Both the position numbers and the translations under genes were made by a program. Shown here piece after piece: positions 8,911 to 60,655 of a DNA stretch of 64,000 bases (its first letter is position 1; the number at the start of each line of letters is the position of its first letter). The notes below the pieces were generated by a model that saw only the letters and a program-made list of their open reading frames with translations, did not search any database and was not told the DNA's origin. Source of the DNA: Paracoccaceae bacterium (GTDB lineage Bacteria; Pseudomonadota; Alphaproteobacteria; Rhodobacterales; Rhodobacteraceae); assembly GCA_902543185.1 (NCBI GenBank), contig CACBXB010000001.1:1-64000 (forward strand), given 5' to 3'.

Positions 8911-9576
8911 TCATTTTTCAAAAATAGTCTTCAATAAATACATATATGCCACAATTACCGGACCTATCATAATTGCAAAGATCAGTGTGCCCACACCAGC
9001 AGTTCCCCCCAAGGACCACCCTATAATTACAACTGAAATTTCTAGTGCATTCCTTACGTAGGCCATCGGAATTTCGGTTTTTTTACTGATGCCAGTCATA
9101 AGCCCATCCCGAGGCCCCGGACCAAGGTTAGCGATAAGATAGATACTTCCCCCTATTCCTATAACCAAAATTCCCAAAAAGACTTGGAGAAGTTTAAGGG
9201 AAATATCTGTTTGATAGGGTATATATGGCAAAGTGATTTCGATAACTGCTGCCACGACAAAGAAGTTTATAAAAGTTCCGATACCTGGTTTTTCTTTAAG
9301 TGGTATCCAAAAAAGTAAAACGCCAAAACTTACAACTATAATTGACAGGCCTATTCCTATTTCAAATTGAATTGCTAACCCTTGGGCCAAAACCATCCAC
9401 GGGCTAACACCAAAATTTGAGCCGAATAATATCGCGTGACCAAAACCAAAAATCGATAAGCCAACCAATAGAAATAGAACCGATAATAAAGGTGGTTTAA
9501 TTGATAATGGTGTTGGAGCACTCCAAAATAAACTTGGAACACTTGTTAATGAAAATATTTTTGAGATGGATTTCAC
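8911..9576 (-). CDS. YczE/YitT-like integral membrane protein
   Basis: Membrane protein of the YczE/YyaS type, 221 aa, with five to six hydrophobic segments and the family-like blocks LFGSNFGVSPW and ANLGPGPRDGLM. The molecular role of this family is unknown; some homologues sit beside antibiotic-synthesis or transporter genes. The frame opens at a GTG (9576) with no good ribosome site, so the true start could be a few codons downstream. It lies 47 nt upstream of the deacetylase gene on the same strand and may be co-transcribed with it. Confidence 0.7.
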   Translation of the reverse strand: MKSISKIFSLTSVPSLFWSAPTPLSIKPPLLSVLFLLVGLSIFGFGHAILFGSNFGVSPWMVLAQGLAIQFEIGIGLSIIVVSFGVLLFWIPLKEKPGIGTFINFFVVAAVIEITLPYIPYQTDISLKLLQVFLGILVIGIGGSIYLIANLGPGPRDGLMTGISKKTEIPMAYVRNALEISVVIIGWSLGGTAGVGTLIFAIMIGPVIVAYMYLLKTIFEK

Positions 9577-9697
9577 CTGCGCAAGCTAGAAGTCTTTTAA
9601 GACTTTTGCAATGTAGATTCAGTGTAAGATATTGTGCCAGATCAAAAAATTTAAAAGCTATCCTCCCTCAGAAAAGCTATCTATAAACTAAAATATC

Positions 9698-11428
9698 ATG
9701 GCTAAGAAAAAAGATGAGTTAAGATCCGCATGTTGGTTTGCCCCAGATGACTTAAGATCCATGGGGCATAGATCACGTGCCATGCAGATGGGGCTAGAAC
9801 GAGAGGATTGGGACGGAAAACCTATAATTGCCATTATTAATACCTGGTCAGATTTATCTCCATGCCATCATCATTTGAGAGACCGGGCCGAGTTTGTTAA
9901 AAAAGGTGTTTATCAGGCTGGCGGCATGCCTGTGGAAATGCCAGTTCATTCCTTCTCTGAGCAATTTCTTAAACCTACATCAATGCTATATCGAAACATG
10001 GGCGCTTTAGAGGTTGAAGAAACCTTGCGCGCTCACCCAATTGATGGAGCAGTCCTCATGGGAGGCTGTGACAAATCAACACCTGCTTTAATCATGGGCG
10101 CAACCAGCATGGGCTTACCTTTTATCTACATGCCTGCAGGAGCAATGTTGCGAGGCAACTATGCAGGTGAAAAGCTAGGGTCTGGTACTGATGTATGGAA
10201 ATACTGGGATGAACGAAGAGCTGGCAATATTTCAAAAGAGCAATGGGAAGGGGTTCAGGGTGGAATTGCTCGAAGCTACGGCACATGTATGACAATGGGA
10301 ACCGCCTCCACCATGATGAGCATTGCTGACGGCTGGGGCTTAACATTACCCGGGGCTTCTTCAATACCAGCGCCTGACGCAGGCCATAAACGCATGGCCG
10401 CGGGGTGCGGTCGTCGAATTGTTGATATGGTCTGGGAGGACCTAACTCCTGATCAAATAATAACCGAAGCAAGTACAAGAAACGCAGTCACCGTTGCAAT
10501 GGCAACAGGTTGCTCAACTAATGCGATAATTCACCTAATCGCAATGGCCCGCCGTGCTGGCGTAAATCTGACGTTAGATCAGCTCGACGAAATAGGCAGA
10601 ACGACACCCGTCATTGCTAATATCAGACCATCAGGAAAAAACTATTTGATGGAAGACTTTTTCTACGCAGGAGGTTTGCGTGCCCTTATGGTTGAACTGG
10701 GCGATAAGCTCGACCTGAATGTCAAAACAGTTACAGGGCAAACACTCAAGGAATGTATCAAAGGGTCCAATAATTATAATAGTGATGTGATCCGAACTCT
10801 TAAAAATCCGGTTTATCATGAAGGATCATTAGCTGTTTTGAAAGGTAATCTGGCACCTGATGGCGCCGTCATAAAACCAGCGGCTATGGACCCCAAATTT
10901 CAAAAACATAACGGACCAGCAATAGTTGCTGATAGCTATGCTGAATTAAAAGAAATTATAAATGACGAAGATTATCCCATAACAGCGGACCATATTTTAG
11001 TTTTAAGAAATGCCGGCCCAAAAGGCGGGCCAGGTATGCCAGAGTGGGGCATGATCCCTATGCCCAAAGCATTACTCAAACAGGGACATAGAGATATGAT
11101 AAGGCTGTCGGATGCGCGCATGTCAGGAACTTCCTATGGTGCATGCATTCTACATGTAGCACCTGAAGCCTTTATTGGTGGACCGCTAGCATTAATTAGA
11201 ACCGGAGATATTATTCAGGTAGATATTCCCAACCGTAAACTTGACGTTGATATTTCCAAAAGTGAAATGAAAAGGCGCCAGGAGGATTGGGTTGCACCTA
11301 AACCTCGATACGAACGTGGATACGGGTATATATATTCAAAACATATTGAACAGGCTGACAAGGGTTGCGATTTCGACTTTCTAAGCACTGACTTTGGAGC
11401 TGCAGTTGAAGAACCGGAAATAAACTAG
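9698..11428 (+). CDS. IlvD/Edd family sugar-acid dehydratase (arabinonate dehydratase-like)
   Basis: Iron-sulfur dehydratase of the IlvD/Edd family, 576 aa. Cluster cysteines are C56 (DLSPCHHH), C124 (GGCDKSTP) and C197 (GTCMTMG). D125 and K126 supply the magnesium site and the carbamylated lysine; the late serine motif RMSGTSYG supplies the catalytic serine. The opening RSACWFAPDDLRSMGHRSR and the length fit the pentonate branch (L-arabinonate/D-xylonate dehydratases) better than the branched-chain amino-acid enzyme IlvD. The product would be a 2-keto-3-deoxy sugar acid. It stands alone on the plus strand and overlaps the convergent cupin gene by 4 nt. No aldolase for such a product is adjacent apart from the class II aldolase fusion at 14.9 kb. 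Confidence 0.82.
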   Translation: MAKKKDELRSACWFAPDDLRSMGHRSRAMQMGLEREDWDGKPIIAIINTWSDLSPCHHHLRDRAEFVKKGVYQAGGMPVEMPVHSFSEQFLKPTSMLYRNMGALEVEETLRAHPIDGAVLMGGCDKSTPALIMGATSMGLPFIYMPAGAMLRGNYAGEKLGSGTDVWKYWDERRAGNISKEQWEGVQGGIARSYGTCMTMGTASTMMSIADGWGLTLPGASSIPAPDAGHKRMAAGCGRRIVDMVWEDLTPDQIITEASTRNAVTVAMATGCSTNAIIHLIAMARRAGVNLTLDQLDEIGRTTPVIANIRPSGKNYLMEDFFYAGGLRALMVELGDKLDLNVKTVTGQTLKECIKGSNNYNSDVIRTLKNPVYHEGSLAVLKGNLAPDGAVIKPAAMDPKFQKHNGPAIVADSYAELKEIINDEDYPITADHILVLRNAGPKGGPGMPEWGMIPMPKALLKQGHRDMIRLSDARMSGTSYGACILHVAPEAFIGGPLALIRTGDIIQVDIPNRKLDVDISKSEMKRRQEDWVAPKPRYERGYGYIYSKHIEQADKGCDFDFLSTDFGAAVEEPEIN

Positions 11429-11799
11429 CTATCGTTTGTTTCTAAATTTTCATAAACTTCTGGTTTAAATCTGGGAGAACAGTGGCAATAAAACTCCAGG
11501 TCTTCAGAATTGCTCAAATTGGTAATTCTTTGAGGGGTGTTAGCTGGGATAATAACACTGTCACCAACGGAGACCTCAATTTCTTTTTCCCCCACAAGAA
11601 CCAAACCGGTACCCTTTCGGATAATATAAATTTCTTTCGTATTTCTAAGGCAATGCAATTGTGTTGTTACGGAAGGTTTAACTCGCGCGACAGCCAACGA
11701 AAACTCTTCGACCTTTTCGCTATTTAGGCACTCAGTTATAAAACATCTCTCGTCAGTCCAAAATTCTGGGGAGCTAATATCATCTCTAGGCAACTTCAA
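11425..11799 (-). CDS. Cupin-domain protein
   Basis: Single-domain cupin, 124 aa. Metal-ligand-like residues are in LHCLRNTKEIYIIRKGTG (His and Glu of motif 1) and in motif 2 (FYCHCSPRF). The start is a TTG at 11799 with AAGGA eight bases upstream; no in-frame ATG exists. It is the last gene of the minus-strand run SDR-cupin behind the purine nucleoside phosphorylase gene. Small cupins of this size act as sugar isomerases, dioxygenases or mannose-6-phosphate-isomerase-like proteins. No specific function can be chosen. Confidence 0.7.
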   Translation of the reverse strand: MKLPRDDISSPEFWTDERCFITECLNSEKVEEFSLAVARVKPSVTTQLHCLRNTKEIYIIRKGTGLVLVGEKEIEVSVGDSVIIPANTPQRITNLSNSEDLEFYCHCSPRFKPEVYENLETNDS

Positions 11800-11823
11800 T
11801 TGACTATTCCTTATTCATTTGCC

Positions 11824-12579
11824 CTACCAGCTGGGCACACATTCCATACCGCCATCAACAATCAAATTTGCCCCCGTAATAAAACTAGCAGCGTCACTAA
11901 CCAAAAATAAGGTAGCATTTGCAATATCTTCACCAGTTCCTAATCGTTTAAGAGGGACATTTTCTAACCAGTTTTGAACACCTTGGGGCCAGTCTTTGTC
12001 TAAATTTTGTCTATCAGTCAATCCGGGACAAATAGAATTTACACGGATATTTCTAGATCCAAGCTCAAGAGCCGATGCTTTAGTAAAATTAATAAGACCT
12101 GCTTTTGAAGCTGCGTAGTGACTATGGTTTATGGCGGGCGTGAGTCCCTCTATCGAACAGATATTTACAATCGATCCACCATTTTCAGAATATTCAGCAA
12201 AATATCGTGTCATCATAATCGGCACCTGTAAATTAGTTTCTAACATTCGACTAATCTCGGAAGGCCCCAAATCGGCTAATGCACACACAGGTTGAATGGC
12301 TGCATTGTTTACCAGAATATCAATTGGTTTAGACTCTTTTTTTATGGCTTCAAACAGTGAGCAGCAGGAATTTGGATCTGAGAAATCCCCAAACACCGTC
12401 GATAGTTCTTCGTTTGCGAGTTTTGCTAATTTTATTTTAGCTGCTTCTACTTCAGAACTATCGTTCCTAGCGTGCAGAATAATTTCTGCCCCAGCTTGCG
12501 CCAGTCTTTTTGCGATGGCAAATCCAATACCACTTTTGGAGCCCGTAATCAGAGCCCGCTTTCCTGTCAGCTCAGTCAA
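11824..12579 (-). CDS. Short-chain dehydrogenase/reductase (classical SDR)
   Basis: NAD(P)-dependent oxidoreductase with a Rossmann fold, 251 aa. Visible are the cofactor loop TGSKSGIG (12-19), NNAA in place of NNAG, an active-site serine (NICSIEG) and YxxxK in HYAASKAG. The C-terminus (ITGANLIVDGGM) is typical of FabG-like SDRs. Start is TTG at 12579 preceded by GAGGAG; there is no early ATG. It follows the purine nucleoside phosphorylase gene by 44 nt and precedes the cupin by 24 nt. In this setting it could reduce or oxidise an aldehyde from sugar cleavage, which is inference. Confidence 0.82.
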   Translation of the reverse strand: MTELTGKRALITGSKSGIGFAIAKRLAQAGAEIILHARNDSSEVEAAKIKLAKLANEELSTVFGDFSDPNSCCSLFEAIKKESKPIDILVNNAAIQPVCALADLGPSEISRMLETNLQVPIMMTRYFAEYSENGGSIVNICSIEGLTPAINHSHYAASKAGLINFTKASALELGSRNIRVNSICPGLTDRQNLDKDWPQGVQNWLENVPLKRLGTGEDIANATLFLVSDAASFITGANLIVDGGMECVPSW

Positions 12580-12623
12580 TCAAACAAACTCCTCAAATAT
12601 ATTAAAATTTTCATTCAATATTA

Positions 12624-13454
12624 TTAAGTCCATGCCTGTAAAAGTCCTGGTAAAATAGATTTAATCTTTTTTCCCGCTACACTGGCATACTCTAAGACAT
12701 CTTCAAGTGTATCGGGCTGCTGTTCTGGTCCACCATCAGCCTTGTTGGTAATTGCTGATAGACCAGCAATCTCAAAACCAGCCTGTTTTGCTGCAATCAC
12801 TTCCATTATTGTAGACATCCCAACAGCATCTGCTCCACTCTCCCTTAGAAAACGTCGCTCCGCCGAAGTCTCCAAAGAAGGGCCTGTTATACCAGCGTAA
12901 ATTCCTTTGCTCAATTTGATACCAGCATTTTTAAAGCACTGAGACACTATTCCCTGTATCTTCTTATCATAAACGTCGGACATGTCAGGAAAGCGTAATC
13001 CTAATTCATCGTCATGTGGGCCAATAAGTGGATTGTGGCCAGTAAAATTTATATGGTCAGTAAGCATCATAACACTTCCAGGTTCCAAACTTGTATTCAA
13101 AGCACCAGCAGCGTTAGTTACAATCATCTTTCTTACACCTAAGTTTTTGGCAACCCTGATTGGAAATGCTATCTCGTTAGCTTTCCAACCCTCATATAGA
13201 TGCAACCTACCCTGCATAACCAATACGGGCCTTCCATTGAAATTCCCCGAAACTAAATTTCCTGCATGAGACGGCGCAGTGGAAAAAGGAAATTCTGGAA
13301 TTTCTTTATAAGAGATTTCTGCTTCCCTTGAAATTTCATTCGTTACATCACCCAAACCAGATCCCAAAATTAGTAGAAGTTCTGGGCTCTGACTCATTCG
13401 CTGACCAATATATTCAGCTGCAAGTTCTATTTTTTTTACAAAATTGTTTTTCAT
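12624..13454 (-). CDS. punA: Purine nucleoside phosphorylase (trimeric PNP family)
   Basis: Phosphorolysis of a purine nucleoside to base plus (deoxy)ribose-1-phosphate in the cytoplasm. Length 276 aa is standard for trimeric PNP/MTAP. Visible are the phosphate-binding GSGLG (32-36) and HAGN blocks, the GRLHLYEGW block, GPSLETSAE, VGMSTIMEV and an asparagine base-recognition motif (TNKADGG). The asparagine favours 6-oxopurines over adenine, so inosine- or methylthioinosine-like nucleosides are expected rather than MTA itself. It is directly downstream of an adenosine/MTA-deaminase-like gene, giving a deaminase-phosphorylase pair like that described in Pseudomonas aeruginosa for methylthioinosine. 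Confidence 0.88.
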   Translation of the reverse strand: MKNNFVKKIELAAEYIGQRMSQSPELLLILGSGLGDVTNEISREAEISYKEIPEFPFSTAPSHAGNLVSGNFNGRPVLVMQGRLHLYEGWKANEIAFPIRVAKNLGVRKMIVTNAAGALNTSLEPGSVMMLTDHINFTGHNPLIGPHDDELGLRFPDMSDVYDKKIQGIVSQCFKNAGIKLSKGIYAGITGPSLETSAERRFLRESGADAVGMSTIMEVIAAKQAGFEIAGLSAITNKADGGPEQQPDTLEDVLEYASVAGKKIKSILPGLLQAWT

Positions 13455-13467
13455 TAGAGGCCTTTTC

Positions 13468-14784
13468 CTACTCGAGACTAGCTTTGATAGATGGCGCTAA
13501 TTGACGAACCTCTGCATGAATTTTTTCAACATCTAGACCACTGATTTTTTTATTTTCCACAACATGTTTTCCAGAAACAAATACATCTGTAACATCCGAA
13601 CGTCCTGCACCAAAAACAAGATGGGTAATTGGGTCAAAAAGAGGAACTGAGTGAAAATTATTAATGTCTAAAAGAATAAAATCTGCATTTTTGCCTATTT
13701 CTAGACTACCAAGTGAGTCCGATTTACCTAATGCCTTCGCACCACTAATGGTTGCCATGTGAAGTACCTGCTCAGCAGTTAAAGCATCAGCTTCCATGTT
13801 TAAGCCTTTTGCTAAACCGCAGGTTAATCGCATTGCCAACCACATATCTAAGTCGTTTCCACTGATTGCTCCATCCGTCCCTAGCGTGAGATTTATTCCT
13901 GCTCTATGCATTTCTTTAACTGGAGCAATACCTGAGCCTAACTTAAGGTTTGACATTGGGTTAAGGACCACATTTGTCTCACTTTGGGCTAAGAGGGATA
14001 TCTCTGTTTCGTCTAGATGTACACAATGAGCCAATACTGAGGTTTTACCCAACAATTTGCACTTGTCTAAGTGCCGTATGACGGAGTTATCATAACGTTT
14101 GTTTATATCATTTTGCTCGGCTTGTGTTTCGGCAGCATGAGTACAAAATAATATTCCGTACTCATCTGCAATGCTTTTAGCCTCACTCAAATTTTGTGGA
14201 GAAACCGTATAGCTCCCGTGGGGCAAGATAGCAGGAATTACACTGTCATCGGATGAGTGGCTTTTAAAAAAATTATGGGCCTCTGAGACATAATTTTCAT
14301 GAGAACGCCCACCTATTCCCGGCAAATCAAAAAAGATACCACCGGTGGATATTCGCATTCCTAAATCTTTTGCAGCTTTAACAGTTTCGTCTGGATACCA
14401 AAACATATCCATGACAGTTGTCGATCCGCCCAAAAGATTTTCCGCTAAACCTAAGACTGAGCCAAGGTAAGTAGTTTCAGGAGTAAGAATAGCTTTTTCA
14501 GCTATCCAAACACGTCCTAACCATTCTTCAAGAGGAAGGTTCTCAACCAGCCCTCTGAACAAACTATCGGCAGCATGACAGTGCATATTTATTAAACCCG
14601 GCATGACTATATTGCCATTTGCTCCAATTATTTTTTTTGCAGTAAGTTTTTTTGCAGCTGATGTGTTAAAGCGTTCTAAAGCTGTTATCTTGCCGTTATT
14701 GACAGCCATGACACCATTTTCGATAATAGAATGATTGCCGTCACATGTGACAATTAAGGCATCTGTAATTAAAATATCATCCAT
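13468..14784 (-). CDS. Amidohydrolase, MTA/SAH/5'-deoxyadenosine deaminase-like
   Basis: Metal-dependent deaminase of the TrzA/MtaD/SsnA branch, 438 aa. The metal site is intact: HxH in NMHCHAAD, H in CTHAAET, H in LAHCVH and D in LGTDGAISG. Substrates in this family include S-adenosylhomocysteine, 5'-methylthioadenosine, 5'-deoxyadenosine, guanine and triazines. The neighbouring 6-oxopurine-type PNP, mtnA and mtnK make an adenine-nucleoside deaminase the best guess. The ATG at 14784 is chosen because GGGAGG lies 8 nt before it; the in-frame ATG at 14790 would sit too close to the same site. A 153-nt gap separates it from the aldolase fusion upstream, so it may have its own promoter. Confidence 0.8.
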   Translation of the reverse strand: MDDILITDALIVTCDGNHSIIENGVMAVNNGKITALERFNTSAAKKLTAKKIIGANGNIVMPGLINMHCHAADSLFRGLVENLPLEEWLGRVWIAEKAILTPETTYLGSVLGLAENLLGGSTTVMDMFWYPDETVKAAKDLGMRISTGGIFFDLPGIGGRSHENYVSEAHNFFKSHSSDDSVIPAILPHGSYTVSPQNLSEAKSIADEYGILFCTHAAETQAEQNDINKRYDNSVIRHLDKCKLLGKTSVLAHCVHLDETEISLLAQSETNVVLNPMSNLKLGSGIAPVKEMHRAGINLTLGTDGAISGNDLDMWLAMRLTCGLAKGLNMEADALTAEQVLHMATISGAKALGKSDSLGSLEIGKNADFILLDINNFHSVPLFDPITHLVFGAGRSDVTDVFVSGKHVVENKKISGLDVEKIHAEVRQLAPSIKASLE

Positions 14785-14937
14785 TATCATATCCTCCCAT
14801 ACCTAGTAGATCTTTAATCCACCTAATTGATAAAAAAGAGCTATGTTGGGTAATAAATTCTCATCTTTTATAGAACATGCTACTCTAACGTCAGTTTCGT
14901 TATGGTTCTTTCGCAGCATAGAGTTTTTTATCTCTGA

Positions 14938-16971
14938 TTAACGCAAGGAAGCTTCAATATTGCCACCATCTACCGTCATTACATGTCCAGTTGTTCGCTC
15001 GGCTTGGGCGAGTGAAACAAAAGCTTCTGCTACATGACTTGCTTTGACTTCTGCATTTAGTAAGTTACCAGCCATATACTTATCTTCAGAAATACCTCGG
15101 GCATTAGCACGTTCAGCAATAAAGTTATCTGTGAGCAAACCTGACCTTATTCTGTCAGCATTAACTCCATTGACGCGAATTCCGTCGCCCCCTAACTCCA
15201 AGGCAAGCTGTCGCATCATGAAAAAAGTTGTTGCCTTTGGCATCCCGTATGCACCAAAATTTTTACCAGGGTTTACAGCTTGTTTCGATATATTAAACAA
15301 GATCTGGCCACCCCTGGATTGCAATTTCATCAGGTTTGCTGCTTCTTTTGCAAACTCGTAATGAGAAAAGAAGTTCAACTCAAAAGCTTTCCTGACGGAA
15401 GAGCTAGTCATATCTATCATTGAGCCCGACTGAGCTGATCCTGCGTTAGAAACTAGTATGTCGAGACCTCCGTATGTCTCTATAACAGATGTAATTGCCT
15501 CTTTTGCTGCCTTTGGATCTGTCACATCCAGCGCTTTTCCAAAATGGCCTTTGCCCAATTTTTCTAGGGCAGCGCCCAAATTTTTTTGGTTTAGATCAAT
15601 CAAAAAACATTGTGCACCTAATGACGCAAATGCATTTGCCGTTTCAAACCCAATTGTTCCTGATCCTCCAGTTACCATTACCACTTTTCCTTGAAACGCC
15701 GGCGCTTTCCCTTTGCCAAGTTTGGCTTGTTCTAATGACCAATATTCACAATCAAATAAATCTTTTTCCGAGATAGGATAAAACCCACCCGCATCTTCAC
15801 CAACTGACCTCACACGAGCATTCTGAACAACAAGATCACCCGCTATACTGGCTGCTTTAAAATTTGAGCCGAGACCTAAAAGACCCACACCTTCCATCCA
15901 TATTGTTTTAGGATCTGGTGGAAGAATAGTTTTAGGTTGGGCCGCTTTGGCAGCCTGGCGCTCAAACATTGCCTTATATTCGTTCTCATAGTCCTTAAGC
16001 GCGTCTTTAATCGCAGAACTTCCCTGCTCCCATATTGACTTTCGTAAAACTAGTGGGCGACCCTTAATCCTTATAACATGATCTGGTGATGCAGTTCCTC
16101 GCTCAGATAAACTGTCCAAATCAGCTCTCTTTAGAAACTCCATTTCTTCTGGACCATTTCTTACATTGATAATTGGCATAGCAGCATTAGGCCCGATCAT
16201 TTCAGCTATCAGACCCCTTATCACTGGTAAGACTTCATGAGATTTATGGCTGGCTTTGACATTGAGAGCAGTCGGCTTTTTCAAGTTAAAATAGTCTGCA
16301 ACAGTTTGAGTATGAGATATTATTTGATTGTAGCTTTCTTCAGCTGTCTCACCAAAAGCAAAATGTCCATGACCCAACAGCATTAAACCTTCAACGCTAG
16401 GATCTTGATCATAAACTTCAGCCGCTTTTTTTGCCAGAGCAAAGCCGGGCATTATATATGGAACTACTCCCAACCTGGAGCCAAAAATTTCTTTACACAC
16501 TTCTTCGGCGTTCGGCAGGTTTGCAAGGATTAAAAATGGTGTAGCATGGGTATGATCGACAAATTTATGTGGAAGAAAAGCATGTAATAATGTTTCGACC
16601 GAAGGATTTGGTGCTGAACTGTCCAGCAAATTAGCCCTTTGAACGTTGACCATATCTTCATCAGATAACTTATCTAGATTTCGCAACTCTCTCAACGGTT
16701 CCAACCAAAGGCCAGGTAGCCCAGGTGCTTGTATCGTATCTAAGTCCCAGCCTGATCCTTTAACATGTATTACTTGTTTAGTATTTCCAAAAAGATCTTT
16801 TCGTTCCACTTTAACAGAGGTGTTACCACCACCATGCATAACAAGATCAGGATTTTGTCCAATTATTCTTGATGTGTAAACTCGAAGCGCAAGCTCTTGA
16901 TCAGCAGCATCTTTGCCTACTTGATCGACATAAGATTTAGCTTCGCTAGATTTATAATTATTTTTGATCAT
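14938..16971 (-). CDS. Class II aldolase / short-chain dehydrogenase fusion
   Basis: Bifunctional protein of 677 aa. Residues 1 to about 400 are a class II (zinc) aldolase of the rhamnulose-1-phosphate aldolase type: HGGGNTSVK at 46-54, E126 as likely catalytic acid, and zinc histidines H140 and H142 (DHTHAT) plus H201 (LLGHGH). Residues 428-677 form an SDR: TGGSGTIG near 434-441, SNAG near 508, S562 (NISK) and Y575/K579 (YGMPK). Known fusions of this build split rhamnulose-1-phosphate and oxidise the lactaldehyde. Here the gene follows mtnK and mtnA by 4 nt, so the expected substrate is 5-methylthioribulose- or 5-deoxyribulose-1-phosphate. Products would be DHAP and methylthioacetaldehyde or acetaldehyde, which the SDR half could then oxidise or reduce. 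The substrate is inferred from context. Confidence 0.82.
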   Translation of the reverse strand: MIKNNYKSSEAKSYVDQVGKDAADQELALRVYTSRIIGQNPDLVMHGGGNTSVKVERKDLFGNTKQVIHVKGSGWDLDTIQAPGLPGLWLEPLRELRNLDKLSDEDMVNVQRANLLDSSAPNPSVETLLHAFLPHKFVDHTHATPFLILANLPNAEEVCKEIFGSRLGVVPYIMPGFALAKKAAEVYDQDPSVEGLMLLGHGHFAFGETAEESYNQIISHTQTVADYFNLKKPTALNVKASHKSHEVLPVIRGLIAEMIGPNAAMPIINVRNGPEEMEFLKRADLDSLSERGTASPDHVIRIKGRPLVLRKSIWEQGSSAIKDALKDYENEYKAMFERQAAKAAQPKTILPPDPKTIWMEGVGLLGLGSNFKAASIAGDLVVQNARVRSVGEDAGGFYPISEKDLFDCEYWSLEQAKLGKGKAPAFQGKVVMVTGGSGTIGFETANAFASLGAQCFLIDLNQKNLGAALEKLGKGHFGKALDVTDPKAAKEAITSVIETYGGLDILVSNAGSAQSGSMIDMTSSSVRKAFELNFFSHYEFAKEAANLMKLQSRGGQILFNISKQAVNPGKNFGAYGMPKATTFFMMRQLALELGGDGIRVNGVNADRIRSGLLTDNFIAERANARGISEDKYMAGNLLNAEVKASHVAEAFVSLAQAERTTGHVMTVDGGNIEASLR

Positions 16972-16975
16972 CTTT

Positions 16976-18073
16976 TCAAAATCCTGCTAAATCTGGGAAC
17001 ATTTTTGCTAGAGCTTTTTCAGAAGCATCGGAAACTCCACGCTCCGTAATTAATCCTGTAACCAATCTGTTTGGGGTAACGTCAAAAGCTGGATTTCCTC
17101 CAGAAACACCCTCTGAAGTAACCCTTATTTCTTCAATACTATTTTTTTCGTGGTGTCCAAAAATATGGGTTACCTCCCGAGCGGCTCGCTCTTCAATTGG
17201 AATATCTGCTACGCCATCACTTATTGTCCAATCTATTGTGGGTGAAGGCAAAGCTACATAAAATGGAACATTATTATCATGAGCTGCTAGTGCCTTGAGA
17301 TACGTGCCAATTTTGTTACAGACATCACCTTGGGCAGTGGTTCGATCAGTACCCACAATAACCATATCAACAAGGCCCTTTTGCATAAGGTGCCCACCAG
17401 CGTTATCTGTGATGTAAGTATTACTAATGCCATGGCTCTCAAGCTCCCAGGCGGTCATTGCTCCTTGATTTCTTGGCCTTGTTTCATCAACCCAAACATG
17501 AATAGGAATGCCTGCCTCATGTGCATGATACATTGGTGAAGTAGCTGTGCCCCAGTCTACTGTTGCCGGCCATCCAGCATTACAATGTGTTAACATCCTA
17601 ACGGGTTCCCCTGCCGGTTTATTAGATGCTATTTTTTTTACAATCTCTAATCCGTGCTCACCTATCTTTTTATTTATACCTACATCTTCTTCTGCCACCA
17701 GATGGGCAAGCTCCAATGCTTTTTTAGCACGTTCTTCCTGAGACACTTGACCCAGTGCCCTTAGGAGTCGATCCAGAGCCCACTTTAGGTTGATTGCTGT
17801 TGGACGAGTTTCTATCAAGGTATCATATGTGTTTTTCAAACCAGAGTCTGAAGCGTCGCTACTTAAAGATATTGCTACTCCATAGGCAGCAGTAGCACCT
17901 ATGAGAGGTGCTCCCCTTACCCACATATCACGAATTGCTACAGCAAATTCATCTAAATTTGTCAGAGCGACTATTCTGAAATCGTGAGGTAGCCATCTTT
18001 GATCAATAATTTTTACCTGACAATCCTTATGGTCATACCAGATTGATCGATAGTGAGTTCCTTGAACCTTCAT
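16976..18073 (-). CDS. mtnA: S-methyl-5-thioribose-1-phosphate isomerase
   Basis: Isomerises methylthioribose-1-phosphate to methylthioribulose-1-phosphate, and in other bacteria also handles 5-deoxyribose-1-phosphate. Length 365 aa is standard. Catalytic residues are present: C164 in LTHCNAG and D243 in VGTDRTT, with the [13 protein letters not shown] block near 53-65 and NKIGTY near 253-258. Its ATG overlaps the mtnK stop (ATGA), and its stop is 4 nt from the aldolase fusion. mtnB, C, D and E, which make up the normal methionine salvage route after this step, are not in the window. The aldolase fusion occupies their place. Confidence 0.93.
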
Positions 18074-19329
18074 AGGTAATTCTCCGAATTGAACTTTTTT
18101 GCCAAGCTAGTAAGCTCACTAGCATTTTTTATCGATTTATTGTTTAAGATTAACTCGCGTCCCATCATTAAGTTTCTAGCTTCGATCTGGGACCTTTTCT
18201 TAGTATCACTGATCTCCTCAAAATCCGCATTATGTGCAAGTGACAAGACACGCCTATGCATTTCAATACCACATATAGCAACAGCATCTTGCCAAATGTG
18301 TTCAAGCATCTCGTTAAGCGCAAAGTCTGAGCTATCTCCCTGATCTTCAAACATTAATCTAGGGAACAAAATACCTGTTCTTTCAGAATTCCATAGTTTT
18401 TTAAATTCCTGCTGAAATGTCTCAAAAGTCTCTTCGATAACTTTCAAAATCCAACTTTGATATTCTGACAAATTTTCGCTATCGCGATGCCCTGGTTGAC
18501 TAAAGTAAGCCATTAAGTAATTGGAAATTAGCATTCCAATATCAAAGCCCATTGGACCGTAGAAGCCAAATTCGGGATCTATAACTTTTGTTTCATTATC
18601 TGTGCACATCACTGAACCAGAGTGTAAATCACCATGACACAAAGTTTCGGTATTAGCTGTGAACTTCATAAAAATCTTATGAGCTTCACTTTTCATTTTC
18701 ACATCTGATCTAAGAATTTTAACAATCGGATCCAGTCCGTCTGTATGATGGTTCATTTCTGCTTCAAAATAAGGATCCGTGAAAACAAATCTTTCGGTTA
18801 TTCCCATTAGCGCAAGGTTACCCTGAAACATTGCTGTATCATTTTTTTTGTCGGCTGTTTGGAGCGATAAATCAGAACCTCTAAATGCATTACGCGCACA
18901 AAATTCTCCAAGCCTTTGCGCTAATCCATTTATATATTCCCCAGCAATTAATTTTTTTCTTAAGATAACGTGCGGCAGAAGTATTTCCATGGCGATAATA
19001 GCTTGGGTTTTGTTAAAATAATATATCTCGGGAACACTCCCAGGATCGCGCTTTGCTTGCCTAACTAAAACCTCGTGTTCATAAAACGAGCGACTTAAGG
19101 GCAGTGGCCAGCTATCGCCTACCAATCTCATATAAGGCAACGCTTGCTTTACAATAATATTTCCTGAGTTACTTGAAACCGTATAGACAAGATTTAAGTT
19201 CCCATCACCCACCTCATCAATCTTCCATTTGCTTGTATCGTCACCTACTATTTTACAGATAGCATCAACTGACCCTAATCTATCGGCAAGCGTTTCGATT
19301 GTAAGTGGCTCGTACTTTTCCGAAGACAT
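18070..19329 (-). CDS. mtnK: S-methyl-5-thioribose kinase
   Basis: ATP-dependent kinase that phosphorylates free methylthioribose at C1, feeding MtnA. Length 419 aa. The aminoglycoside-phosphotransferase-like active site is visible: catalytic HGDLHSGS (232-239, D234) and metal-binding [15 protein letters not shown] starting at D251. The ATG has a near-perfect ribosome site (TAAGGAGGAG). It is the first gene of the minus-strand operon and diverges from the ribose-type ABC importer across a 127-nt gap. No MTA/SAH nucleosidase is seen in the window, so free methylthioribose would come from uptake or from a nucleosidase elsewhere. Confidence 0.92.
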
Positions 19330-19390
19330 ACAATCGCTCCTCCTTATTTAAATTTTAATTAAAATTGAACATAAACAAGCAATGGCATGA

Positions 19391-19416
19391 ATTGACTTTT
19401 GTCAATAGTGTTGACA
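19391..19416. promoter_or_regulatory. Inverted repeat and putative -35 in the mtnK / ABC importer divergent region
   Basis: In the 127-nt region between the divergent mtnK and importer genes, a 6-bp inverted repeat (ATTGAC at 19391-19396, GTCAAT at 19401-19406) flanks TTTT and is followed by TTGACA at 19411-19416, a consensus -35 on the plus strand. No convincing -10 at 16-18 nt was found. The repeat could be an operator coordinating both transcription units. It is short, so this is tentative. Confidence 0.3.
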
Positions 19417-19456
19417 GTCGAAGAGCTTAGGTTAAGCTTTTCCTTGGGAGAGGGAA

Positions 19457-20980
19457 ATGTCGAAAACTGCTTGCCAAATTTCTGGTATTGTAAAGTCATT
19501 TGGGCCGAACAAAGTCCTTCAGGAAATCAATTTAGAATTGCCTGCCGGTATGATTACTGTACTCATGGGTGCAAATGGTGCAGGAAAATCAACTTTAGTT
19601 AAAATACTATGTGGTGTGCATCAAGCAGATGCTGGATCGGTTTATCTTTTGGGTGAAAGGTTCGAGCCAGTTTCACCAGCTGATGCGTTTAAATCTGGAG
19701 TAGTGACTGTTCATCAGTCAATAAACAATGGTGTTATTCCTGATTTAGACGTAGCTTCAAACCTTATGATTGATAAACTTGCAGAACAAAATTCAGGGTT
19801 CTTTATTAATTCAGAAAAGCTAAAAAAAGAGGCTGATAAAATTGCGTCAGCTATGGATATAAACTTGGATACAGCAACCTTGGTTAGGGATTTGGGGCCA
19901 GCTGATAAACAGATGATTGCTATAGCTCGTGCGATGGCCCATGCTCCCAAACTGCTTATTTTGGACGAGCCAACTTCCTCTCTTTCTGAAAATGAAGCTA
20001 AAAGACTTTTTAAACTGTTACAAAGACTAAAAAAGCAAGGCGTTGCTATTTTATATATTTCTCATCGAATGTCAGATATAAATAGTGTTGCCGATCGCAT
20101 CGTAGCCATGAGAGACGGTACAATATCAGGACTATTCGAAGAAAAGCCCTTAAATTATGAGGGGGCTGTTACGGCAATGCTCGGCCAGAAGCTATCGCAA
20201 AATGAGATTAAAATAAACGAGCGAAAACGAGAAATATTGAATTTAAAAGAGGTAAGATTAGCTACTGACAGCCAACCCTTTGACTTATCTTTTTATGAAA
20301 ATGAAATTGTTTCAATCACCGGCCTTATCGGTAGTGGAAAAACTACTTTGGCATCGCAAATATTTGGATTAAGTCCAAATTCAAAAGTAAAAATGACTTT
20401 AAATGGGAATCCATACAGTCCCCAAAGCCCAAAAGAAGCCATCGCAGCAGGCGTTTATATGTGTCCTAAAGATAGGGCATCAAACGCTGTTGTTTCAGAA
20501 TTTGATATATCTAACAATTTAGCGTTACCATTTTTTAAAAAGCACAGCAGATTTTCATTCCTTCGTGCCAAAAGCCTTTCGCAAAATGCTAAAAATTCTA
20601 TTAGTGAACTTGGAATAGTGTGCCAATCTGAGGTGGACTCCGTTACAACATTATCCGGAGGTAACCAGCAGAAAGTTATGGTTGGAAGGTGGTTGGCTGA
20701 GGAGTCTTCGGTGCTCCTTTTAGACGAACCCTTTCAAGGAGTAGATATAAAGGCTCGGCGCGATATTGGTATTCAGATACGATCAACTTCTAGCCAAAGA
20801 GCAACACTTATATTTGTTGCTGAACTTGATGAAGCTTTAGAAATAGCAGATAGGGTCATTGTATTACATGAAGGAAATCTTGTTGGTGAATATCAAAATA
20901 ATAGTAAAAATATACCAGAAATTGTATCGAGTTTTAGTGGAAGCGCTTATAAACAAGATAGTTCAAATTACGGAACTTAG
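19457..20980 (+). CDS. Ribose/galactose-type ABC importer ATPase (RbsA/MglA family)
   Basis: Double-domain ATPase of a CUT2 sugar importer, 507 aa, standard length. The first domain has Walker A GANGAGKST (38-46), an altered signature (DLGPADKQM, as usual in this family) and Walker B LLILDEPTSS. The second has GLIGSGKTT and a canonical LSGGNQQK signature. The ATG follows GAGAGGGAA. The genes order ATPase-permease-binding protein, spaced 2 and 32 nt. The divergent mtnK operon makes methylthioribose, 5-deoxyribose, ribose or a nucleoside the likely cargo; the sequence alone does not say which. Confidence 0.9.
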   Translation: MSKTACQISGIVKSFGPNKVLQEINLELPAGMITVLMGANGAGKSTLVKILCGVHQADAGSVYLLGERFEPVSPADAFKSGVVTVHQSINNGVIPDLDVASNLMIDKLAEQNSGFFINSEKLKKEADKIASAMDINLDTATLVRDLGPADKQMIAIARAMAHAPKLLILDEPTSSLSENEAKRLFKLLQRLKKQGVAILYISHRMSDINSVADRIVAMRDGTISGLFEEKPLNYEGAVTAMLGQKLSQNEIKINERKREILNLKEVRLATDSQPFDLSFYENEIVSITGLIGSGKTTLASQIFGLSPNSKVKMTLNGNPYSPQSPKEAIAAGVYMCPKDRASNAVVSEFDISNNLALPFFKKHSRFSFLRAKSLSQNAKNSISELGIVCQSEVDSVTTLSGGNQQKVMVGRWLAEESSVLLLDEPFQGVDIKARRDIGIQIRSTSSQRATLIFVAELDEALEIADRVIVLHEGNLVGEYQNNSKNIPEIVSSFSGSAYKQDSSNYGT

Positions 20981-20982
20981 AT

Positions 20983-22005
20983 ATGGCTAATGATCAAAAA
21001 ATGAATTCAAGACGATTTGCTATAAAATACGGCTTCCTTATTCTACTTGTAGGATTGGTAATTTTCTTTTCGATCGCAGCAGAGGGGTTTGCTGGACCCC
21101 GATCTGCAGTATTTATTTTTCAATCTGTTTCTATAACAGGAATTTTAGCTCTTGGTGTTACAGCCACGTTGGTAGTAGATGGTTTTGATCTTTCTATAGG
21201 CTCCGTCGCAACTTCAGCTCTAATGCTATCTGCATACGTAATGGTTGTCTTAGAAATGTCTGCTTTCTCTGCAATTGTTGCATGCTTGTTCATGGGTGCA
21301 GCAGTTGGATTTATAAATGGTTTACTAATAGTAAAAGCCAGAGTACCAGACCTGCTAGCAACACTTGGAATGATGTTTCTTTTAATTGGACTTCAACGTA
21401 TACCAACAGAAGGCCGTTCAATTTCCACTGGAATGAAATTACCGGATGGTTCAACCGCTGAGGGAGTTTACTCTCAAGCTTTTTTATGGCTTGGCAGACA
21501 CAGACTAGACTTTTTTTTGGAAAAACTAATCCCCATCCCAGTTATTATTTTTATTCTTGTCGGCATACTAATATGGGTTTTTCTCGAGTTAACCCGGCAT
21601 GGAAGATTAATGTATGCTATTGGCTCAAATGAAACGGCTACAGCGCTAGCCGGCGCTAATGTGAATAAATACAAGATTTTAGCATACGTTATATCAGGAG
21701 TAATGGCATCAATTGGTGGCATTTTGCTTTCTGCACGTCTGGGCAGAGGGGATATTGCATCAGGAAACAATCTTTTATTGGATTCGGTAGCTGCGGCATT
21801 AATTGGATTTGCAGTTCTTGGCGCGGCTAAACCTAATGCATTTGGTACAGCAATAGGAGCTCTATTTGTGGGTATTCTTTTACAGGGTCTCACTATGATG
21901 AATGCGCCCTATTATACACAAGATTTTGTAAAAGGAGCTGTCTTAGTGATTGCTTTGATTTTTACATTTGCCCTTTCTTTTAGTGGGCGCAAAAGTGGTC
22001 ACTAG
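20983..22005 (+). CDS. Ribose-type ABC importer permease (RbsC family)
   Basis: Inner-membrane permease, 340 aa, with about nine hydrophobic segments. Typical CUT2 blocks are GFDLSIGS near 67-74, VPDLLATLGMM near 130 and the AIGSNETATALAGANV cytoplasmic loop that contacts the ATPase. An extended loop around residues 145-170 (EGRSISTGMKLPDG) is a little longer than in RbsC. It starts 2 nt after the ATPase stop. Confidence 0.9.
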   Translation: MANDQKMNSRRFAIKYGFLILLVGLVIFFSIAAEGFAGPRSAVFIFQSVSITGILALGVTATLVVDGFDLSIGSVATSALMLSAYVMVVLEMSAFSAIVACLFMGAAVGFINGLLIVKARVPDLLATLGMMFLLIGLQRIPTEGRSISTGMKLPDGSTAEGVYSQAFLWLGRHRLDFFLEKLIPIPVIIFILVGILIWVFLELTRHGRLMYAIGSNETATALAGANVNKYKILAYVISGVMASIGGILLSARLGRGDIASGNNLLLDSVAAALIGFAVLGAAKPNAFGTAIGALFVGILLQGLTMMNAPYYTQDFVKGAVLVIALIFTFALSFSGRKSGH

Positions 22006-22037
22006 AATGTGACTTAAACAAACTAGGGAGGAAAACT

Positions 22038-23084
22038 ATGTTTAGAAGATCATTATTAAAATTAATAGGAGGGATGGTTGCATTACCTGTGACCCTTTCA
22101 ACCTCTGCATTTGCAGGAGATATGCCTGCACCATTTGATAATCCTGGTGACGTTAAAATCGCTCTTGTTAGGTATCTTTCAACAGGCGACTTTTTCCAAG
22201 CCTATCTATCAGGTGTGGAGACACAAGCTGCAGCTCTAGGTGTGGATTTGCGAGTTTTTGATAGCCGGCAAGATGCGGCTTTACAATCAGATATGGTAGA
22301 TCAAGCTATAGCTCTAGGTGTGGATGGAATTGTAATCCAACATGGACTAACCGAAAGTATGCGAGATGCTGCCCAACGAGCAGTAGATGCGGGAATAAAA
22401 GTCGTTGCATTTGACGTGAATGTTGAAAACGCAGCAATTCCACAAATAGAACAATCTGACTATTTACTAGGTAAACTTGCTTTGGAGCAAGCCATCAAAG
22501 ATAACGGAACGTCTTGGAAAGCAGGATATGTTTATGTCCCGGGAATTGCACCGCTAGATAGACGGCACGCTGCGTGGGAAGACATAAAAGCCGCCAATCC
22601 GGGAATTGAGGAAGTTGCTCAATTTGGAACGCTTGACAACCCAATTGCAAACACAAACGCTAACCAAGCAAGGTCTGTTTTGCAAGCAAACTCCGATATT
22701 ACAGTTATGTTTGCCCCATATGATGAATTTGCCAAAGGCGTCAAAATTGCTGTAGACGAAGCAGGTCTTACAGATCAAATTGATATATATTCTGCAGATG
22801 TTTCAACTGCAGACATAGCAGCAATGCGTGAACCTAATTCCGCTTGGGCAGCAACAGTTGCTACAAATCCAGCGGTTGTTGGGGAAGTGTCTGTTAGATC
22901 ACTCGCAATGATGCTTGCAGGTGAAAACCCAGGAAGTAATGTTGTTGTACCGCCAACTCTGATCACTCAGAAATTCTTAAATGACAATGACATTAAAAAT
23001 ATGGCAGACCTATCAGCAAAAATGCCACAATTTGCTCACGCTGATGTATCGGTTCCAAGCTGGATGCCATTGCCTAAGCGTTAA
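22038..23084 (+). CDS. Periplasmic sugar-binding protein (RbsB-like)
   Basis: Substrate-binding protein of the ribose-type importer, periplasmic binding protein fold I, 348 aa. A signal peptide spans about residues 1-26 (RRSLLKLIGG, then AFA before the mature GDMPAP). The body shows repeated beta-alpha units such as VDGIVIQHG and GIKVVAFDVN, the ligand-facing strand-end pattern of RbsB. The ATG has a strong ribosome site (GGGAGGAAA). A stable hairpin terminator follows 6 nt after the stop, ending the importer operon. Ligand undetermined; a pentose, deoxypentose or nucleoside fits the context. Confidence 0.88.
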   Translation: MFRRSLLKLIGGMVALPVTLSTSAFAGDMPAPFDNPGDVKIALVRYLSTGDFFQAYLSGVETQAAALGVDLRVFDSRQDAALQSDMVDQAIALGVDGIVIQHGLTESMRDAAQRAVDAGIKVVAFDVNVENAAIPQIEQSDYLLGKLALEQAIKDNGTSWKAGYVYVPGIAPLDRRHAAWEDIKAANPGIEEVAQFGTLDNPIANTNANQARSVLQANSDITVMFAPYDEFAKGVKIAVDEAGLTDQIDIYSADVSTADIAAMREPNSAWAATVATNPAVVGEVSVRSLAMMLAGENPGSNVVVPPTLITQKFLNDNDIKNMADLSAKMPQFAHADVSVPSWMPLPKR

Positions 23085-23090
23085 AATTAA

Positions 23091-23130
23091 TTTGAGCTGG
23101 GTGCAAACCCAGCTCAAATCTCTTTTCTAT
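23091..23130 (+). terminator. Rho-independent terminator after the ABC importer operon
   Basis: Perfect 12-bp stem (23091-23102 with 23107-23118) closed by a GCAA tetraloop of the GNRA class, followed by the T-rich tail TCTCTTTTCT. It begins 6 nt after the binding-protein stop codon. The strongest terminator seen in the window. Confidence 0.88.
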
Positions 23131-23157
23131 ATTTTACTTTTAGAATTCAGCAGATTG

Positions 23158-23523
23158 ATGCCCAAAAATATTATTAAAATTTTAGAAAAAAATTTTAGTG
23201 ATATGAAGACAGGTGAAAAAATGCTGATATCTTCTCCTGAGAAAATTACCGAGTATGTAAAAACCTTAGCACCGGGATGCTTCAAGTCGGTGAAACAAAT
23301 CCGGAAGGAATTGGCATTATTAGAGGGCGCAGACAACACTTGCCCCGTGACCACAGGTATTTTTCTTAAAAAGGCAATTCAAGAGAATTATAACCCAAAT
23401 ATGATAGAGGAATCTTCTATACCTTTCTGGCGGGTAATTGATGAAAACCATCCAGTTTTAAAAAAGCTTGAAATTGATGGCAGTAAAATAGCAAAGATAA
23501 GAATTGCAGAAGGTTTCAAATAA
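23158..23523 (+). CDS. Small protein with ATL/MGMT-like winged-helix features
   Basis: Protein of 121 aa from the ATG at 23158; the open frame extends upstream into the binding-protein gene, but that part is a shadow. Residues about 40-75 (KSVKQIRKELALLEG, CPVTTGIFLKK) and the late motif IPFWRVID resemble the DNA-binding half of O6-methylguanine methyltransferases and alkyltransferase-like proteins, whose motif is PxxRVI. The PCHR cysteine is absent, so alkyl transfer is not expected. No strong ribosome site was seen, and ATG at 23203 is an alternative. It stands between a terminator and the convergent urease operon. Function unknown; the fold assignment is tentative. Confidence 0.55.
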   Translation: MPKNIIKILEKNFSDMKTGEKMLISSPEKITEYVKTLAPGCFKSVKQIRKELALLEGADNTCPVTTGIFLKKAIQENYNPNMIEESSIPFWRVIDENHPVLKKLEIDGSKIAKIRIAEGFK

Positions 23524-23568
23524 CAAGCCTGAAATTTAATTATTTCATCTCACAAAATAATTAAAAAT

Positions 23569-25275: not shown

Positions 25276-25284
25276 GTTACTCTC

Positions 25285-27466: not shown

Positions 27467-27473
27467 TTTTTTC

Positions 27474-32088: not shown

Positions 32089-32098
32089 AGAGGAATTT

Positions 32099-33307: not shown

Positions 33308-33308
33308 A

Positions 33309-34679: not shown

Positions 34680-34685
34680 CTTCTC

Positions 34686-38518: not shown

Positions 38519-38519
38519 A

Positions 38520-39890: not shown

Positions 39891-39904
39891 ATAAGAGAAA
39901 ATTT

Positions 39905-52702: not shown

Positions 52703-52705
52703 CTT

Positions 52706-53704: not shown

Positions 53705-53723
53705 AAAAAATCTTAATAACTAT

Positions 53724-54635: not shown

Positions 54636-54642
54636 TTTTACC

Positions 54643-55851: not shown

Positions 55852-55854
55852 TAC

Positions 55855-60645: not shown

Positions 60646-60655
60646 GTCACCACCA

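What the first reader, a model, noticed from the sequence alone, without database searches (positions are those of the whole stretch)
11425..23084. Candidate nucleoside/thiosugar disposal system: importer, mtnK, mtnA, aldolase-SDR fusion, deaminase and PNP in one locus
Seen: mtnK-mtnA-aldolase/SDR read as one minus-strand operon (4-nt overlap, 4-nt gap); 153 nt later a deaminase, PNP, SDR and cupin follow on the same strand; an RbsABC-type importer is divergent. Known: MtnA plus a class II aldolase (the DHAP shunt) handles MTA and 5'-deoxyadenosine waste in some bacteria. Inference: the window holds two entry routes, free 5-substituted ribose via MtnK and nucleoside via deaminase-PNP, converging on MtnA and a fused aldolase-dehydrogenase, plus a dedicated uptake system. 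Hypoxanthine from PNP could flow into the XdhABC route in the same window. I know of no described system with this exact composition.
Basis: partly seen in the sequence, partly recalled or inferred. Interest (0 to 1): 0.75.

Follow-up and report, generated by a model that had tools for sequence, protein, structure and literature searches.

The report
Thiosugar import-and-cleavage gene locus
A bacterium, probably marine, carries in one place genes that look able to import and break down sulfur-containing or deoxy sugar and nucleoside leftovers of S-adenosylmethionine metabolism; this is a richer, two-entrance version of a pathway already known from a few bacteria.

Summary
The genes are real and placed as described. 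The core (divergent ABC importer, mtnK, mtnA, class II aldolase-SDR fusion) is best read as an import-fed dihydroxyacetone-phosphate (DHAP) shunt for 5-methylthioribose/5-deoxyribose. The binding protein's nearest solved structure is titled a 5-methylthioribose binding protein. In 289 alphaproteobacterial genomes, all 4 with this binding protein have mtnK within 4 kb; in one, the importer sits inside an mtnK...mtnA-aldolase operon. The fusion fails the rhamnulose-aldolase cut-offs that true rhamnose loci pass. In the genus, MtnP, MtnN, MtnB and MtnD have no match over cut-off (0 of 16 genomes).

The deaminase-PNP module is a separable second entrance. Some sister genomes carry it with no mtnA found; two other lineages tie it to mtnA, one with no MtnK or MtnP found. 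A relative (L007) has a 12-gene run including a SorC-type regulator and a nucleoside importer; in the window both are lost, and the fusion-deaminase gap is a deletion scar holding one end of each. An inverted repeat conserved in most relatives lies in the divergent promoter; the regulator is homologous to E. coli MtnR.

New variant of a known kind. No substrate has been tested.

The parts
22038..23084 (+). periplasmic binding protein of the importer (Peripla_BP_4), 5-methylthioribose-binding type
   Evidence: phmmer 227 bits to 4ry8; Foldseek best hit 4ry8, titled '5-methylthioribose transporter solute binding protein TLET_1677', E 2e-32, 38% id
20983..22005 (+). ABC permease (BPD_transp_2)
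   Evidence: found with mtnK in 15 of 80 fusion loci
19457..20980 (+). ABC ATPase, sugar type (two ABC domains)
19400..19416 (.). inverted repeat TGTCAA-N5-TTGACA in the divergent mtnK/importer promoter, candidate operator
   Evidence: only match in the window at up to 1 mismatch, exact (0.31 expected; 25 of 100 shuffles also hold one, so its conservation is what counts); conserved in most relatives
18070..19329 (-). mtnK, 5-methylthioribose kinase family
   Evidence: TIGR01767 466 bits, cut-off 275
16976..18073 (-). mtnA, 5-methylthioribose-1-phosphate isomerase
   Evidence: TIGR00512 406 bits, cut-off 279
14938..16971 (-). class II aldolase fused to a short-chain dehydrogenase
   Evidence: NF006192 814 bits (cut-off 639); TIGR02632 RhaD 424 (cut-off 568); Glu126 shared with a standalone aldolase; two-domain model, pLDDT 89.5
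14830..14919 (-). relic: first 30 codons of a SorC-type regulator gene
   Evidence: blastn 80% to L007 11982-12143, which spans the end of the fusion and the start of the regulator; 90 nt open frame
14798..14836 (-). relic: 3' end of permease 2 of a BMP-type nucleoside importer
   Evidence: blastn 85% to L007 17591-17629, 90% to L004 16633-16672
13468..14790 (-). amidohydrolase of the MTA/SAH/5'-deoxyadenosine deaminase group
   Evidence: best solved match 4f0r MTA/SAH deaminase; below every NCBIfam cut-off
12624..13454 (-). purine nucleoside phosphorylase, PNPH/PunA type
   Evidence: NF006054 and TIGR01700 above cut-off
11824..12579 (-). second SDR, substrate unknown, travels with deaminase and PNP
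11425..11799 (-). small cupin, function unknown, travels with deaminase and PNP

Best explanation
The locus is an import-fed DHAP shunt with a second, nucleoside-fed entrance. The ABC importer takes up 5-methylthioribose and/or 5-deoxyribose (inferred from its binding protein). MtnK makes the 1-phosphate and MtnA the ribulose-1-phosphate (inferred from family assignment). The aldolase half of the fusion cleaves it to DHAP and (methylthio)acetaldehyde, and the attached SDR reduces or oxidises that aldehyde (inferred). In parallel, the deaminase and PNP can turn MTA or 5'-deoxyadenosine into hypoxanthine plus the same 1-phosphate for MtnA (inferred, less certain; they may also serve ordinary nucleosides). 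A fuller form of the operon, as in L007, also holds a SorC/MtnR-type regulator and a nucleoside importer, which the window's lineage has lost by deletion (read from the sequence against relatives).
For: Importer: nearest solved protein is the 5-methylthioribose-binding 4ry8; all 4 of 289 genomes with the binding protein (one is the window's own) have mtnK within 4 kb, while only 10 of 289 have mtnK; in G192 the order is mtnK-ATPase-permease-SBP-mtnA-standalone class II aldolase. Fusion: mtnA or mtnP lies in 38 of 80 fetched loci; rhamnulose cut-offs are not met, while fusions from two rhamnose loci score 1069-1236 bits beside rhamnose isomerase and RhaS. Alternative sinks: 0 of 16 genus genomes have MtnP, MtnN or MtnB over cut-off or an ARD (MtnD) match. 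Nucleoside entry: L050's genome has mtnA-fusion-SorC-deaminase-PNP and no MtnK or MtnP found; G017 has a BMP importer divergent from PNP-deaminase-mtnA; L007 has all 12 genes in one run. Regulation: shared repeat in front of these units; regulator 30% identical to E. coli YjhU, which is renamed MtnR and shown to repress the DHAP shunt in PMC12632272 (passages).
Against: No activity or binding data. The deaminase passes no NCBIfam cut-off, and the PNP scores as an inosine/guanosine enzyme, far below the methylthioinosine phosphorylase model (74 of 223 bits). The deaminase module occurs in G002, G009 and G012, where no MtnA was found (70-81% complete), and G002's block has its own nucleoside importer, so it can probably work without MtnA. 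42 of 80 fusion loci show neither mtnA nor mtnP in the fetched DNA, 18 of them with about 10 kb on both sides. 6 of the 10 mtnK genomes lack this binding protein. A PNP_UDP-type protein with 33-46 bits on the MtnN model (cut-off 73.8) exists in 10 of 16 genus genomes and could be another route for MTA. G017 also has MtnP. The regulator is a relic in the window. The genome is 75% complete.
Confidence: 0.72

Rival explanations
1. The importer-mtnK-mtnA-fusion core is a 5-methylthioribose/5-deoxyribose pathway, but the deaminase-PNP-SDR-cupin block is an ordinary purine-nucleoside catabolic operon that merely became its neighbour and does not feed MtnA.
For: The module is found with no detected MtnA in G002, G009, G012, on another contig than the fusion in G005, G007, G011, with its own BMP nucleoside importer in L164, and without the conserved repeat in L162-L166. 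The PNP matches the inosine/guanosine model.
Against: L050 joins it directly to mtnA-fusion-SorC in a genome with no MtnK or MtnP found; G017 has PNP-deaminase-mtnA in one run behind the conserved repeat; in L007 it continues the mtnK run.
Confidence: 0.33
2. The fusion is a rhamnulose-1-phosphate aldolase/lactaldehyde dehydrogenase and the locus is for rhamnose or another deoxyhexose.
For: Same two-domain architecture; NCBIfam TIGR02632 matches at 424 bits.
Against: Below the TIGR02632 (568) and NF006189 (634) cut-offs, while fusions from two rhamnose loci score 1069-1236 bits next to rhamnose isomerase and RhaS; neighbours here are mtnK and mtnA; only 29-32% identity to the rhamnose type; residue 126 is Glu as in a standalone mtn-operon aldolase, Asp in the rhamnose type.
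Confidence: 0.04
3. The importer carries ribose; its closeness to mtnK is incidental.
For: ATPase, permease and binding protein fall broadly in the ribose/arabinose family.
Against: RbsB model score only 48 of 337 bits; best match by sequence and fold is the 5-methylthioribose protein; in the alignments several residues that I recall as ribose contacts differ from ribose binders and match 4ry8 in type; tight linkage to mtnK.
Confidence: 0.08

Closest known systems
DHAP shunt of E. coli (mtnK-mtnA-ald2-transporter, repressor MtnR/YjhU; PMC12632272 and PMC10986504, passages)
   Same: Kinase, isomerase, class II aldolase, linked transporter, and in relatives a homologous regulator (30% identity)
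   Different: Aldolase fused to an SDR; ABC importer with a 5-methylthioribose-type binding protein; an added deaminase-PNP entrance; regulator lost in the window
5-deoxyribose disposal clusters (drdK-drdI-drdA, Bacillus thuringiensis; PMC6079011, passages)
   Same: Kinase-isomerase-aldolase logic; some of those clusters also include sugar transporter genes
   Different: Fuculose-type standalone aldolase there; no deaminase-PNP module mentioned in the passages seen
DHAP-ethylene shunt of Rhodospirillum rubrum and Rhodopseudomonas palustris (PMC5893883, passages)
   Same: MtnA and an aldolase giving DHAP and 2-(methylthio)acetaldehyde, then reduction by a putative alcohol dehydrogenase
   Different: Entry there by MtnP; aldolase and dehydrogenase are separate steps by separate enzymes, here one chain
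Methylthioribose transporters of Bacillus subtilis (mentioned in PMC6302742 as identified in the supplement of Borriss et al. 2018, which I did not see)
   Same: Transport of methylthioribose across the membrane
   Different: Cannot be compared: the source was not read, and the passage speaks of leakage out of the cell
MTA deaminase plus methylthioinosine phosphorylase route of Pseudomonas aeruginosa (recalled)
   Same: Deaminate first, then phosphorolyse to the 1-phosphate
   Different: The PNP here is not of the methylthioinosine phosphorylase family (74 of 223 bits)
RhaD aldolase-SDR fusion of L-rhamnose catabolism (TIGR02632)
   Same: Domain architecture
   Different: Scores below the family cut-off; different neighbours

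Membership tests
DHAP shunt | 5-methylthioribose kinase or MTA phosphorylase | tested here: met
   MtnK 466 bits, cut-off 275
DHAP shunt | MtnA isomerase | tested here: met
   406 bits, cut-off 279
DHAP shunt | class II aldolase acting on the MtnA product | tested here: inconclusive
   Aldolase_II domain; Glu126, His140, His142, His201 align with the standalone aldolase of an mtnK-mtnA operon; mtnA or mtnP nearby in 38 of 80 loci; no assay possible
DHAP shunt | growth on or disposal of MTR/MTA/5-deoxyribose | not testable with these tools
   needs experiment
canonical methionine salvage (MtnBCDE) | MtnB and MtnD present | tested here: not met
   0 of 16 genus genomes with MtnB over cut-off or any ARD match; MtnC and MtnE not searched
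RhaD aldolase-SDR (TIGR02632) | score above family cut-off and rhamnose neighbours | tested here: not met
   424 of 568 bits; neighbours mtnK and mtnA; positive controls
5-methylthioribose binding proteins (4ry8) | sequence and fold relationship | tested here: met
   227 bits, 38% identity, best of the PDB by sequence and by fold
5-methylthioribose binding proteins (4ry8) | binds methylthioribose | not testable with these tools
   needs a binding assay
methylthioinosine phosphorylase (NF006599) | score above cut-off | tested here: not met
   74 of 223 bits
MTA/SAH/5'-deoxyadenosine deaminase | score above an NCBIfam cut-off | tested here: not met
   PRK07228 311 of 522, PRK15493 246 of 779; nearest solved protein is nevertheless the MTA/SAH deaminase 4f0r
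SorC/MtnR-type regulon | regulator gene in the locus | tested here: not met
   only a 30-codon relic remains in the window; full gene in L007, L008, L009 and others
SorC/MtnR-type regulon | conserved inverted repeat in the promoter | tested here: met
   window 19400-19416, no mismatch; 24 of 33 matches in 103 loci lie upstream of pathway genes, 5-9 matches in each of five shuffles; that the regulator binds it is inference

The most novel reading that the evidence does not exclude
A regulon of Alphaproteobacteria that I have not found described, marked by TGTCAA-N5/6-TTGACA and a SorC/MtnR-type regulator, scavenges environmental 5'-thio- and 5'-deoxynucleosides and the matching ribose sugars through exchangeable parts. 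Entry is by a methylthioribose importer with MtnK, by MtnP, or by a nucleoside importer with deaminase and PNP. The exit is an aldolase-SDR fusion or, in other members, a RuBisCO-like protein with a split transketolase, a branch whose reaction I do not know; some members add a sulfoxide-reductase-type molybdoenzyme, perhaps to reclaim oxidised MTA.
Probability: 0.4. Interest if true: 0.78.

Novelty: new variant of a known kind. Interest (0 to 1): 0.55.

Why it matters
MTA has been quantified in reef seawater and found depleted after passing through sponges (PMC5234435, passages), but my searches turned up no described uptake route for it or its sugar in marine bacteria. If right, this locus gives such a route a genetic marker (importer, kinase, fusion), assigns a function to part of an aldolase-SDR family whose NCBIfam name states no substrate (NF006192), and links it to a regulator type already shown to control the same pathway in E. 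coli. The relatives also show a possible new exit branch (RuBisCO-like protein plus transketolase) that can be tested.

Tried and rejected
Rhamnose reading: rejected by cut-offs and by positive controls from two rhamnose loci. Ribose importer: disfavoured. Canonical methionine salvage: no MtnB over cut-off and no MtnD in the genus. MtnN: below-cut-off hits only; the one inspected (L158) is a 236-aa PNP_UDP_1 protein, not resolved further. PNP 5' pocket: a Leu/Ile stands where PDB homologue 8swu and the family PNP of L155 have His (recalled as human His257, a contact of the 5'-OH); but PNPs of the same module in G002, G009 and G012, where no MtnA was found, share it, and another solved PNP (6tk9) lacks the His too, so it does not single out MTA. 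Riboswitch: none over gathering score in 9000-27500; the only Rfam match is a ureB-associated sRNA. Fold search of the fusion was uninformative on substrate (only aldolase hit listed is an uncharacterised Thermoplasma protein). R. rubrum proteome paper PMC4958253 (passages): the MTA-responsive binding proteins there are of the methionine (MetQ) type, not this family. Literature; in these listings I saw no paper on an ABC importer for methylthioribose or on an aldolase-SDR fusion in MTA metabolism, in a library of open-licence papers only; one review (PMC6302742, passages) points to methylthioribose transporters in a supplement I did not see. Rows left out of counts: the genome-contig scan found 112 relatives, of which the tool kept 80; 'class' was set to 300 and returned 289 genomes, whose tables list only some of the genomes without a match. 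Two statements in my notebook are wrong and corrected here: the L007 run has 12 genes, not 11, and the regulator relic is 30 codons, not about 38.
Full report
What is there. The window is the start of contig 1 of a 2.02-Mb, 75%-complete genome; near-identical loci lie in records titled Rhodobacteraceae with AG- and AH- isolate names, which I recall as marine single-cell genomes. MtnK overlaps mtnA by 4 nt and mtnA is 4 nt from the fusion. The gap to the deaminase is 147 nt.

Conservation of the core. Of the 80 loci kept (of 112 found) that encode a relative of the fusion, 33 carry mtnA, 19 mtnK, 15 the importer's binding protein and 10 mtnP in the fetched DNA; mtnA or mtnP is in 38 of 80; all 15 with the binding protein also carry mtnK and mtnA. 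The other 42 show neither mtnA nor mtnP; 18 of these have about 10 kb on both sides, so the fusion also occurs apart from them. The binding protein is better conserved (72-97% identity to the window's in 10 relatives) than the fusion in the same loci (55-92%). In 289 alphaproteobacterial genomes, 4 encode this binding protein at E <= 1e-60 and 10 encode MtnK over cut-off; all 4 have mtnK on the same contig within 4 kb (one of the 4 is the window's own genome), and 6 MtnK genomes lack it. In G192 the importer genes lie between mtnK and mtnA, followed by a standalone class II aldolase (189 bits on Aldolase_II), with a gene upstream that reads by eye as a GntR regulator: the importer belongs to the shunt.

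The importer's ligand. The nearest solved protein, by sequence (227 bits) and by fold of an AlphaFold2 model (pLDDT 85; Foldseek E 2e-32, 38% identity), is 4ry8, whose title calls it a 5-methylthioribose transporter solute binding protein. The printed title is cut; that the crystal holds 5-methylthioribose is recalled. In the alignments, positions I recall as ribose contacts in RbsB (Arg90, Asn190, Gln235) are Val127, Tyr228, Thr276 here and Leu, Trp, Thr in 4ry8.

The fusion. It scores 814 bits on NF006192 (cut-off 639), a model named only 'bifunctional aldolase/short-chain dehydrogenase', and 424 on the rhamnulose fusion TIGR02632 (cut-off 568). Fusions taken as controls from two relatives score 1069-1236 bits on the rhamnulose models and sit by rhamnose isomerase and RhaS. 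Residue 126 is Glu in the window and in the standalone aldolase of G192 but Asp in the rhamnose fusions; three His align in all 7 sequences compared (their metal-binding role is recalled). Its SDR half keeps Ser562, Tyr575, Lys579 and Asp459 invariant in 20 sequences; the catalytic role of the first three, and NAD preference from the last, are recalled. Both domains fold with confidence (pLDDT 89.5).

Other sinks and sources. In the genus (16 genomes, 53-96% complete): MtnP over cut-off 0 of 16, although all 9 other family members sampled have it; MtnN over cut-off 0 of 16; MtnB over cut-off 0 of 16; ARD/MtnD 0 of 16; MtnA 12 of 16; the deaminase 14 of 16. The deaminase-PNP pair is thus the best candidate seen for disposal of internally made MTA. 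A weaker alternative is a PNP_UDP-type protein with 33-46 bits on the MtnN model (cut-off 73.8), present in 10 of the 16 and not detected in the window's own genome.

The deaminase-PNP module. Against a fixed link to MtnA: G002, G009 and G012 carry deaminase-PNP-SDR-cupin but no MtnA was found (70-81% complete), and G005, G007 and G011 have the deaminase on another contig than the fusion. For a link: L050's genome has mtnA-fusion-SorC-deaminase-PNP-SDR-cupin, and neither MtnK nor MtnP was found in it (a MAG of unstated completeness, so absence is tentative). Of 10 fusion-bearing genomes searched, MtnP over cut-off is in 4, MtnK in 6, and the only one with neither is L050's. G017, of the window's family, has SorC and a four-gene BMP-type nucleoside importer divergent from PNP-deaminase-mtnA; it also has MtnP elsewhere. 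L007 has mtnK-mtnA-fusion-SorC-BMP importer (4 genes)-deaminase-PNP-SDR-cupin, 12 genes in one run with gaps under about 75 nt.

The scar. The 147 nt before the window's deaminase hold the first 30 codons of the SorC gene (14919-14830; 80% to L007 up to its position 12143) joined to the last part of BMP permease 2 (14836-14798; from L007 position 17591, 85%; 90% to L004), that is, a deletion of about 5.4 kb relative to L007; L003 and L006 have the same joint (93% over the 200 nt compared). L004 keeps the importer but no full SorC gene; L008 keeps SorC but not the importer. The window thus looks like a reduced form of the L007 operon.

Regulation. TGTCAA-N5-TTGACA lies at 19400-19416, the only match in the window at up to one mismatch (0.31 expected; 25 of 100 shuffles also hold one, so alone it is weak). 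GTCAA-N4-7-TTGAC occurs 33 times in 103 loci (1.75 Mb) against 5-9 in each of five first-order Markov shuffles; 24 lie within 350 nt upstream of mtnK, mtnA, the fusion or PNP, and a 25th (L015, position 3618) is 39 nt upstream of the transketolase gene. The remaining 8 have no such neighbour. Of the 15 loci with the importer, L017 lacks the repeat; so does the promoter in G192 (L116) and G039 (L119), and it is absent from L162-L166, where the deaminase module stands alone. The loci are related, so these are not independent events. The SorC-type regulator (PF04198) is 30% identical to E. coli YjhU over 301 residues, which PMC12632272 (passages) renames MtnR and shows to repress the DHAP shunt (there called DeoR family). 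That this regulator binds the repeat is inference.

Comparison with print. Kinase-isomerase-aldolase clusters, some with sugar transporters, are described in PMC6079011 (passages); the E. coli operon with a putative transporter in PMC12632272 (start of abstract, passages) and PMC10986504 (passages); the MtnP-MtnA-Ald2 route with a putative alcohol dehydrogenase in PMC5893883 (passages). PMC6302742 (passages) mentions that methylthioribose transporters were identified, in a supplement I did not see. A 2020 survey by North and colleagues (recalled) is not held.

Verdict. The core reading is well supported by comparison, the nucleoside entrance moderately. All substrate statements are inference.

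Noticed in passing
L015 435-3579; L020-L024; L170 13965-17023: A RuBisCO-like protein and a transketolase (split into two genes in L015, L023 and L170) lie next to the methylthioribose-type importer in 6 of 80 fusion loci (all 6 with the importer) and after PNP-deaminase-mtnA in G017; the transketolase halves are 79-81% identical between L015 and G017. Possibly a new exit branch for the MtnA product; reaction unknown.
   Followed up: partly
L170 11686-13962; L010 and L011 just after the fusion: A BisC/DMSO-reductase-type molybdoenzyme sits in these runs (below the bisC_fam cut-off in L170, 910 of 1018 bits); it might reduce sulfoxides of MTA or methylthioribose.
   Followed up: no
window 50780-60744 and 23569-26994: Purine breakdown genes in the same window: 8-oxoguanine deaminase, PuuE allantoinase and XdhABC above cut-off, and urease genes next to the importer (read by eye from the translations).
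   Followed up: partly
window 26553-26841: Match to the 5' ureB small RNA family RF02514, 98.5 bits, on the plus strand opposite the gene read as urease alpha.
   Followed up: no
window 31282-41218: CoA-transferase-like, PrpD-like, caprolactamase/hydantoinase-like and amidase-like genes in a row, all below curated cut-offs; probably an unrelated catabolic operon.
   Followed up: no
L162 11491-16741: In G005 the deaminase-PNP-SDR-cupin block is followed by genes that read by eye as aldo-keto reductase, fumarylacetoacetate-hydrolase-like and altronate-dehydratase-like.
   Followed up: no
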